Part shown: positions 27,943 through 28,290 of the stretch, piece by piece
Layout of the letters: each line of letters begins with the position of its first letter
Numbering within the stretch: position 1 is the first letter of the stretch
Assembly (NCBI GenBank): GCA_902541825.1
Contig: CACBRY010000006.1
Location: 1 to 47,128 of the forward strand
DNA from: an uncultured Pelagibacteraceae bacterium
GTDB lineage: Bacteria; Pseudomonadota; Alphaproteobacteria; Pelagibacterales; Pelagibacteraceae
Length of the DNA: 47,128 nt
Direction of reading: 5' to 3'
Program-made: the position numbers and the translations under genes
Notes under the pieces: model-generated
Databases searched by the model: none
What the model saw: only the letters and a program-made list of their open reading frames with translations
Told to the model about the DNA's origin: nothing

Positions 27943-27984
27943 GTTTATTAAATAAAACTATTGGACATAAAATTTTAAAAATGT

Positions 27985-28013
27985 TAACTAACCTTTTTTT
28001 TAGGAGGTAGTTA
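27985..28013 (+). promoter_or_regulatory. Shine-Dalgarno of rpsU within a possible masking hairpin
   Basis: AGGAGG (28002-28007, AGGAGGT to 28008) is a near-perfect anti-SD match, the strongest I noticed in this window, 5 nt before the ATT at 28013. It fixes the rpsU start region. The stretch 27985-27994 (T AACTA A CCT) can pair with 28005-28013 (AGG TAGTT A) over nine pairs with one bulged A and a 10-nt loop. That fold would cover half of the Shine-Dalgarno and the first base of the start codon. The pairing is seen; regulation is inferred. Confidence 0.55.
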
Positions 28014-28207
28014 TTAAAATAGAAGTCAAAGATAATAATGTAGAACAAGCACTAAGAGTTTTAAAAAGAAAACTCCAAAGAGATGGGTTTTTTAAAATTA
28101 TAAAGTTAAAAAACACTTACGAAAAACCATCTGAAAAAAAAAAGAGAATTTTACAAGAAAATATTAAAAGAGTAAAAAAACTCAAAAAATTAAGAAATAG
28201 AATTTAA
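28013..28207 (+). CDS. rpsU: 30S ribosomal protein bS21, non-canonical (AUU) start
   Basis: bS21 sits near the 3' end of 16S rRNA and helps mRNA recognition during initiation. Translating from 28013 gives 64 residues. The initial residues after the start are KIEVKDNNVEQALRVLKRKL, then QRDGFF, and a basic C-terminus (KKLKKLRNRI): the full bS21 pattern. The frame contains no ATG, GTG or TTG at all. The upstream in-frame stop is TAG at 28001. The ATT lies 5 nt after AGGAGGT, the best-placed start. The stop is 6 nt before the initiator tRNA. Alternatives: ATA at 28019, or a sequence error changing ATG to ATT. Confidence 0.88.
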   Translation: MKIEVKDNNVEQALRVLKRKLQRDGFFKIIKLKNTYEKPSEKKKRILQENIKRVKKLKKLRNRI

Positions 28208-28213
28208 GTATAT

Positions 28214-28290
<77 letters not shown>

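What the first reader, a model, noticed from the sequence alone, without database searches (positions are those of the whole stretch)
28001..28207. rpsU (bS21) has no canonical start codon; AUU start is the best reading
The 64-codon frame is an unmistakable bS21 but contains no ATG, GTG or TTG anywhere, and TAG at 28001 closes it upstream. ATT at 28013 lies 5 nt after AGGAGGT, the strongest Shine-Dalgarno I noticed in the window. AUU starts are rare; E. coli infC is the classic case, where IF3 rejects the codon and thereby controls its own level. bS21 works at the initiation step next to the anti-Shine-Dalgarno, so an AUU start plus an extreme Shine-Dalgarno would let the cell sense initiation capacity. 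Standard gene finders would miss this gene.
Basis: partly seen in the sequence, partly recalled or inferred. Interest (0 to 1): 0.72.

Follow-up and report, generated by a model that had tools for sequence, protein, structure and literature searches.

The report
Ribosomal protein gene starting at AUU
In the abundant ocean bacteria SAR11 the gene for ribosomal protein bS21 begins at AUU instead of AUG behind an unusually strong ribosome-binding site, often sits right before the initiator tRNA gene, and belongs to a wider avoidance of AUG by this gene in its bacterial class, which suggests that the protein's synthesis is deliberately metered at the initiation step it serves.

Summary
The window's only bS21 frame has no ATG/GTG/TTG and begins at ATT 28013 behind the window's strongest Shine-Dalgarno (SD). 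It is not an error: in Pelagibacteraceae, 176 distinct sequences give ATT 152, ATC 2, ACG 5 (all with GGAGG or GGGGG) and ATG 17 (none with either). Ile, Thr and Met alternate only as AUG-like codons, so this site is the start. AUG and SD loss agree in 131 of 131 tree rows; a single AUG clade is rejected (p-AU 6e-6), but only 4 independent pairs exist (p 0.125) and local recombination is not excluded. The sister family uses ATA (37 of 38). In 130 other Alphaproteobacteria rpsU starts read GTG 59, ATG 24, TTG 18, ATC 13, ATA 8, CTG 5, ATT 2, ACG 1; control bL27 is ATG in 30 of 30. Class-wide, SD strength does not track the codon. New: the initiator tRNA gene follows rpsU after 0-8 nt in 131 of 131 Pelagibacter-genus loci, and is the only match to its pattern in 13 of 13 genomes. 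The start is close to settled; feedback through IF3, bS21 or fMet-tRNA is inferred and untested. Closest known: infC (AUU), Streptomyces sigR (GTC), Flavobacterium rpsU.

The parts
27962..27990 (+). Predicted rpsU promoter: -35 TGGACA 27962-27967, 17-nt spacer, extended -10 TGTTAACTA with hexamer TAACTA 27985-27990
   Evidence: The pattern NNGACA - 17 nt - TGnTA precedes the start in 157 of 160 distinct non-AUG leaders and 17 of 17 AUG leaders, always with a spacer of 17 although 15-19 was allowed; 0 of 177 shuffles. The generic sigma-70 scan did not flag it. Function inferred.
28001..28003 (+). In-frame TAG that excludes any upstream start in this genome (TTG in most relatives)
   Evidence: L063 and L220 also have TAG here
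28002..28009 (+). Extended Shine-Dalgarno AGGAGGTA, 8 pairs with the genome's own 16S tail
28013..28015 (+). ATT start codon of rpsU
28013..28207 (+). rpsU, ribosomal protein bS21, 64 codons and stop
28214..28290 (+). Initiator tRNA gene (tRNA-fMet, anticodon CAU, C1-A72 mismatch), 6 nt after the rpsU stop; probably in the same transcript (inferred)
   Evidence: adjacency in 131 of 131 genus loci and C1-A72 in 131 of 131; one pattern match per genome in 13 of 13 genomes

Best explanation
The AUU at 28013 is the true start of rpsU, read by initiator tRNA as fMet (shown by comparison, about 0.95; no protein evidence). The strong SD holds the 30S subunit on a start codon that it would otherwise reject (inferred from SD and codon changing together in SAR11). 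That would be a translational feedback of the infC type acting on a platform protein. In the Pelagibacter genus the same short transcript probably also carries the only initiator tRNA gene, so that bS21 and fMet-tRNA supply are set together. Shown: start position, covariation of start codon and SD in SAR11, no second copy found, class-wide scarcity of AUG at this gene, tRNA linkage. Inferred: metering, feedback, its sign, co-transcription.
For: ATT 152, ATC 2, ACG 5, ATG 17 of 176 distinct sequences, with GGAGG or GGGGG in all 159 non-AUG and in none of the 17 AUG; AUG and SD loss agree in 131 of 131 tree rows and AUG as one clade is rejected; 23 of 159 non-AUG frames hold no canonical start upstream of the core; sister family ATA 37 of 38; class sample 24 ATG of 130, control bL27 30 ATG of 30; outside the class 23 ATG and 1 TTG of 24; strongest SD of the window; short unstructured leader; only initiator tRNA gene adjacent. 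Precedents: AUU of infC and GTC of sigR under IF3 (passages of PMC5472188); bS21-lacking ribosomes favour rpsU mRNA in Flavobacterium (passages of PMC9976891).
Against: No expression or protein data. Across the class SD strength does not rise with weaker start codons; AUG genes have if anything the stronger SD (medians -12.8 for AUG, -10.5 for GUG/UUG, -9.3 for the others; no difference significant). Only 4 independent SAR11 pairs (p 0.125), and L227 and L234, apart on the tree, share an identical 20-nt leader, so recombination may have spread the AUG form. SAR11 infC itself appears to start with GTG, not AUU (30 of 30). In E. coli bS21 is said to promote SD pairing (passage of PMC10931766), which would reverse the Flavobacterium type of feedback. 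AUU is also present in genera without the adjacent tRNA, so the tRNA link is not the reason for AUU.
Confidence: 0.45

Rival explanations
1. Static tuning: AUU with a strong SD, or AUG without one, are two ways to reach the same modest bS21 output; there is no feedback, only stabilising selection on the rate.
For: In SAR11 strong SD and AUG never occur together and an SD-less AUG form replaces the AUU form; GTG and TTG starts, weak but ordinary, are the commonest class-wide.
Against: AUG is one substitution away and gives the same rate only after a second change, yet non-canonical codons recur in two families of the order and in many families of the class; phage copies, which need no host feedback, use ATG or TTG in 83 of 88 distinct sequences. 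None of this excludes it.
Confidence: 0.4
2. The weak start limits ribosome traffic into the initiator tRNA that begins 0-8 nt after the stop codon, so that tRNA folding and 5' processing are not blocked by terminating ribosomes.
For: Adjacency in 131 of 131 genus loci; no other initiator tRNA gene found.
Against: Genera g3, g5 and g6 lack the adjacent tRNA but keep ATT with an SD, as does the sister family with ATA. At most a later added constraint.
Confidence: 0.06
3. Relic: a weak codon frozen by history and compensated by the SD, with no present function.
For: The state is old, shared by the whole family; once AUG arises the SD is absent.
Against: Internal Ile codons vary (ATT 559, ATA 375, ATC 42) whereas the start varies only among ATT, ATC, ACG and ATG; codon-3 ATA is however equally fixed (170 of 178).
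Confidence: 0.06
4. The start is not the ATT: TTG at -12 in relatives, or ATA at codon 3, or an error in this genome.
For: TTG at -12 is present in 131 of 159 non-AUG sequences; codon 3 is ATA in 170 of 178.
Against: The TTG lies inside the SD with a T-run before it and is replaced by TAG, CTG, CCG, TGG or TCG in others; ATA would stand 11 nt from GGAGG; the ATG variants appear exactly at the ATT site; single-cell genomes agree.
Confidence: 0.03

Closest known systems
infC (IF3) with AUU start in E. coli, ATC in Streptomyces
   Same: A component of translation initiation whose own gene starts at an AUH codon (passages of PMC5472188)
   Different: Different protein; IF3 itself rejects the codon, whereas a role of bS21 in codon choice is not shown; SAR11 infC appears to start with GTG
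Streptomyces sigR with GTC start and extended ribosome-binding site AGGAGGTG
   Same: Non-canonical start with a conserved extended SD; misannotated to an upstream canonical codon in databases (passages of PMC5472188)
   Different: A stress sigma factor, not a ribosomal protein; IF3 repression was shown there and is not tested here
Flavobacterium rpsU autoregulation by ribosomes lacking bS21
   Same: Same gene; extraordinarily strong SD where strong SDs are few; bS21 status controls its translation there (passages of PMC9976891)
   Different: The passages seen mention no unusual start codon; the anti-SD is sequestered there by residues described as conserved in Bacteroidia; autoregulation is untested in SAR11
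Phage-encoded bS21
   Same: Same protein family in marine phages, Pelagibacter phage HTVC008M included
   Different: ATG 56, TTG 27, 5 without a near canonical start among 88 distinct sequences; most hosts unknown

Membership tests
Ribosomal protein bS21 (PF01165 / TIGR00030) | Score above the curated cut-offs | tested here: met
   58.8 bits vs 27; 51.2 vs 28.95
Genes started at AUU, AUC or AUA | No canonical start possible in the frame; non-canonical codon at a conserved, SD-spaced site | tested here: met
Genes started at AUU, AUC or AUA | Experimental N-terminus at that codon | not testable with these tools
   Needs proteomics or ribosome profiling
infC/sigR-type control by IF3 | Translation falls with more IF3 and rises in infC fidelity mutants, lost with AUG | not testable with these tools
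   Only the sequence layout (weak codon, extended SD) is shown
Bacteroidota-type rpsU autoregulation | Exceptionally strong SD at rpsU compared with other genes | tested here: met
   -12.3 vs best -9.3 kcal/mol of 50 window ORFs; the genome outside the window was not examined
Bacteroidota-type rpsU autoregulation | Anti-SD sequestered in a bS21/bS18/bS6 pocket; translation rises on bS21 loss | not tested
   Pocket residues were not compared; function needs experiment
Initiator tRNA | CAU anticodon and 1-72 mismatch (criterion recalled) | tested here: met
   C1-A72 in 131 of 131 genus loci
Initiator tRNA | Three G-C pairs at the foot of the anticodon stem (recalled) | tested here: not met
   A-U replaces the first pair (TCAGG/CCTGA 107, CAAGG/CCTTG 24 of 131); I recall such variants in other Alphaproteobacteria, not checked

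The most novel reading that the evidence does not exclude
Across Alphaproteobacteria bS21 synthesis is metered by a deliberately poor start codon that is read through SD pairing, a second infC-like feedback loop that monitors completeness of the 30S platform; in Pelagibacter it is wired to the sole initiator tRNA gene, so that one short transcript senses and sets initiation capacity.
Probability: 0.25. Interest if true: 0.9.

Novelty: new variant of a known kind. Interest (0 to 1): 0.77.

Why it matters
AUU, AUC and AUA starts are documented for very few bacterial genes (recalled, and as stated for infC in the passages of PMC5472188). Here one is the norm for a ribosomal protein gene of what are commonly called the most abundant ocean bacteria (recalled), and weak or non-canonical starts recur in the same gene through the class sample. 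The natural AUU, AUC, ACG and AUG alleles with matched SD changes are a ready-made experiment on how SD pairing buys tolerance of a poor start codon, and on whether bS21, IF3 and initiator tRNA supply are regulated together. Start annotation of this gene is at risk wherever software accepts only ATG, GTG and TTG.

Tried and rejected
Sequence error or pseudogene: rejected, because the codon is shared by independent genomes. A second rpsU: none found in the incomplete own genome, nor in the relatives except G057. TTG at -12 as the start: rejected. AUU at SAR11 infC too: no, GTG directly after TAA in 30 of 30 loci. Class-wide SD compensation: looked for and not found. Conservation of ATT as proof by itself: weak, because codon 3 is as fixed on ATA (170 of 178). 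Leader structure: none, less structured than its shuffles. Generic promoter and terminator scan: no plus-strand hit at the conserved promoter. Viral copies as AUU users: no. Plasmid copies and a Shinella record without annotation: not used. Canonical 16S tail GGATCACCTCCTT: 0 of 7 genomes; the tail was then read from loci of three genomes. First parsers missed or misread rows and were replaced; one search ended in a script error after printing its table. Its rule differed: it set seven loci aside as having a canonical codon at -9 or -7, which assigns to the near-cognate codon at -6 or -5 (L299, L301, L344, L437, L464, L336, L350). Rows dropped before counts: L210 and L214, the two extra bS21 of G057, not matched by the family motif; repeats with identical start, leader and protein (201 rows to 176; a slightly different rule gives 178). 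Papers: search listings, with no paper found; passages only, never a whole paper or supplement; in PMC4117421 (Caulobacter) none of the terms occurred in the main text.

Full report
WHAT IS THERE. The window is contig 6 of an incomplete genome (873 kb, 73.6% complete) whose relatives are named Pelagibacteraceae. At 28013-28207 lies bS21. TAG at 28001 closes the frame, the frame holds no ATG, GTG or TTG, and ATT 28013 stands 5 nt after AGGAGG. The SD forms 8 pairs with the genome's own 16S tail at -12.3 kcal/mol, stronger than the best start of any of 50 mechanical ORFs of at least 120 codons in the window (-9.3).

THE START IS REAL AND SHARED. In a genus sample of 101 genomes, 82 carry bS21 and all 82 starts were read: 74 ATT, 4 ACG, 4 ATG. 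Pooling these with 80 named genome records (some may be the same genomes), 12 loci of other genera of the family, six further genus loci and the pattern hits gives 201 rows, 176 distinct: ATT 152, ATC 2, ACG 5, ATG 17. The residue would be Ile, Thr or Met if it were internal; these codons form one class only as starts. The position aligns with the start of other alphaproteobacterial bS21. Of 159 non-AUG sequences, 23 have no canonical codon in the open frame upstream of the conserved core, 131 have the in-frame TTG that is itself part of TTGGAGG, and 5 have another; the TTG is TAG, CTG, CCG, TGG or TCG elsewhere. In genera g2, g3 and g4 a stop codon stands just upstream, with one or two codons between it and ATT (L141-L144, L151).

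CODON AND SD CHANGE TOGETHER IN SAR11. All 159 distinct non-AUG sequences have GGAGG (155) or GGGGG (4); none of the 17 AUG sequences has either (mean pairing 0.3 kcal/mol against about -10). Of 399 genus genomes 16 show ATG and 5 ACG at the site (how many of the 399 hold bS21 was not counted). On a tree of suhB, rpmE and gcrA (131 rows) AUG and SD loss need 5 changes each and agree in all rows; holding the AUG rows as one clade is rejected (p-AU 6e-6), and 4 independent pairs go 4:0, too few for significance (p 0.125). Short-range recombination of the rpsU leader could reduce the true number of events: L227 and L234, in different places on the tree, share an identical 20-nt leader.

THE WIDER PATTERN. 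The other family of the order has ATA in 37 of 38 loci and ATC in 1, with no canonical codon upstream in 35 of 38 frames. In a class sample of 142 genomes, 132 had bS21; one locus for each of the 130 outside the window's family was read. By a fixed rule (ATG, GTG or TTG at the aligned site, else one codon earlier, else a near-cognate codon at the earlier and then the aligned site) the starts are GTG 59, ATG 24, TTG 18, ATC 13, ATA 8, CTG 5, ATT 2, ACG 1. In seven of the near-cognate loci the frame is closed upstream and holds no canonical codon before the conserved core (L304, L329, L354, L355, L357, L359, L363); in others a canonical codon lies farther up, close by or inside the SD, so single assignments may be wrong. 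The control bL27 is ATG in the 30 best of 131 matching genomes of the same sample (the other 101 were not read). Outside the class, among the 27 new loci of the phylum search, 23 of 24 bS21 start with ATG and one with TTG, while the 3 alphaproteobacterial ones have GTG (best-scoring loci only). Against a general trade-off: across the class SD strength does not differ between start classes, and the AUG genes have if anything the stronger SD (medians -12.8, -10.5 and -9.3 kcal/mol; p 0.11-0.64). The compensation is thus seen in SAR11 only.

THE NEIGHBOUR. ARAGORN finds tRNA-Met(CAU) at 28214-28290. Its C1-A72 mismatch marks it as the initiator (criterion recalled). It follows the rpsU stop after 0-8 nt in 131 of 131 genus loci, and in none of 30 loci of the sister family, 30 of the class or 27 of the phylum. 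L141 and L142 (g2) and L151 (g4) also have it; g3 (L143, L144) does not, and six loci of g5 and g6 (L145-L150) run into a cspA-like frame (read by eye). A degenerate initiator pattern matches once in each of 13 genomes, 12 of them at least 90% complete; by coordinates it adjoins rpsU in 11, not in G109 and G102. A conserved extended -10 promoter with a 17-nt spacer precedes rpsU; if transcription starts 6-7 nt after the -10 box the leader is about 15 nt (inferred) and unstructured. So a short transcription unit probably carries bS21 and the only initiator tRNA gene. AUU is older than this link, since g3, g5 and g6 have AUU without it.

MECHANISM. IF3 represses non-canonical starts; infC (ATT in E. 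coli, ATC in Streptomyces) and sigR (GTC behind a conserved AGGAGGTG) are precedents (passages of PMC5472188). In Flavobacterium rpsU is the gene with an extended SD, and ribosomes lacking bS21 translate it better, in interplay with IF3 (passages of PMC9976891). I think the SAR11 gene combines both devices. Direct evidence stops at comparative sequence; feedback, its sign and the sensor are inference, and static tuning is almost as likely. The E. coli role of bS21 in promoting SD pairing (passage of PMC10931766) would reverse part of the Flavobacterium logic. Phage bS21 genes, Pelagibacter phage HTVC008M included, use ATG (56) or TTG (27) in 83 of 88 distinct sequences, the other 5 having no canonical codon near.

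NOVELTY. Searches for rpsU with AUU and start codon, rpsU with non-canonical start codon, AUU with S21 and Alphaproteobacteria, ribosomal protein S21 with GTG and start codon, Pelagibacter with Shine-Dalgarno and start codon, and initiator tRNA with rpsU listed no paper whose title or abstract start describes this; passages were read in only some of them, and most subscription journals are not held. I file it as a new variant of a known kind: a non-AUG start on a gene for an initiation component.

Noticed in passing
28214-28290 and 131 genus loci: The initiator tRNA has A-U in place of the first of the three G-C anticodon-stem pairs (TCAGG/CCTGA 107, CAAGG/CCTTG 24 of 131).
   Followed up: partly
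L245-L274: SAR11 infC: the frame opens with GTG directly after TAA in 30 of 30 loci, with no obvious SD.
   Followed up: partly
L422-L424: The 16S tail reads GGATTACCTCCTTTCT, with T where the usual tail (recalled) has C (GGATCACCTCC), in three genomes; 0 of 7 genomes match GGATCACCTCCTT.
   Followed up: partly
L145-L150: In genera g5 and g6 of the family rpsU is followed by a cold-shock-protein-like frame instead of the tRNA.
   Followed up: no
27962-27990 and relatives: A nearly invariant TAGACA/TGGACA element with a 17-nt spacer and extended -10 box precedes rpsU, missed by the generic promoter scan.
   Followed up: partly
L210, L214 (genome G057): Two extra, divergent bS21 genes in one genome of 3% contamination; phage or foreign origin not tested.
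   Followed up: no
L465-L601: Many phage bS21 genes start with TTG behind AGGAGGT (27 of 88 distinct sequences have TTG), perhaps a similar metering.
   Followed up: no
PMC10117765: A Sinorhizobium small protein newly found by ribosome profiling (SEP10) is said to resemble S21, possibly another rpsU-like gene missed by annotation.
   Followed up: no
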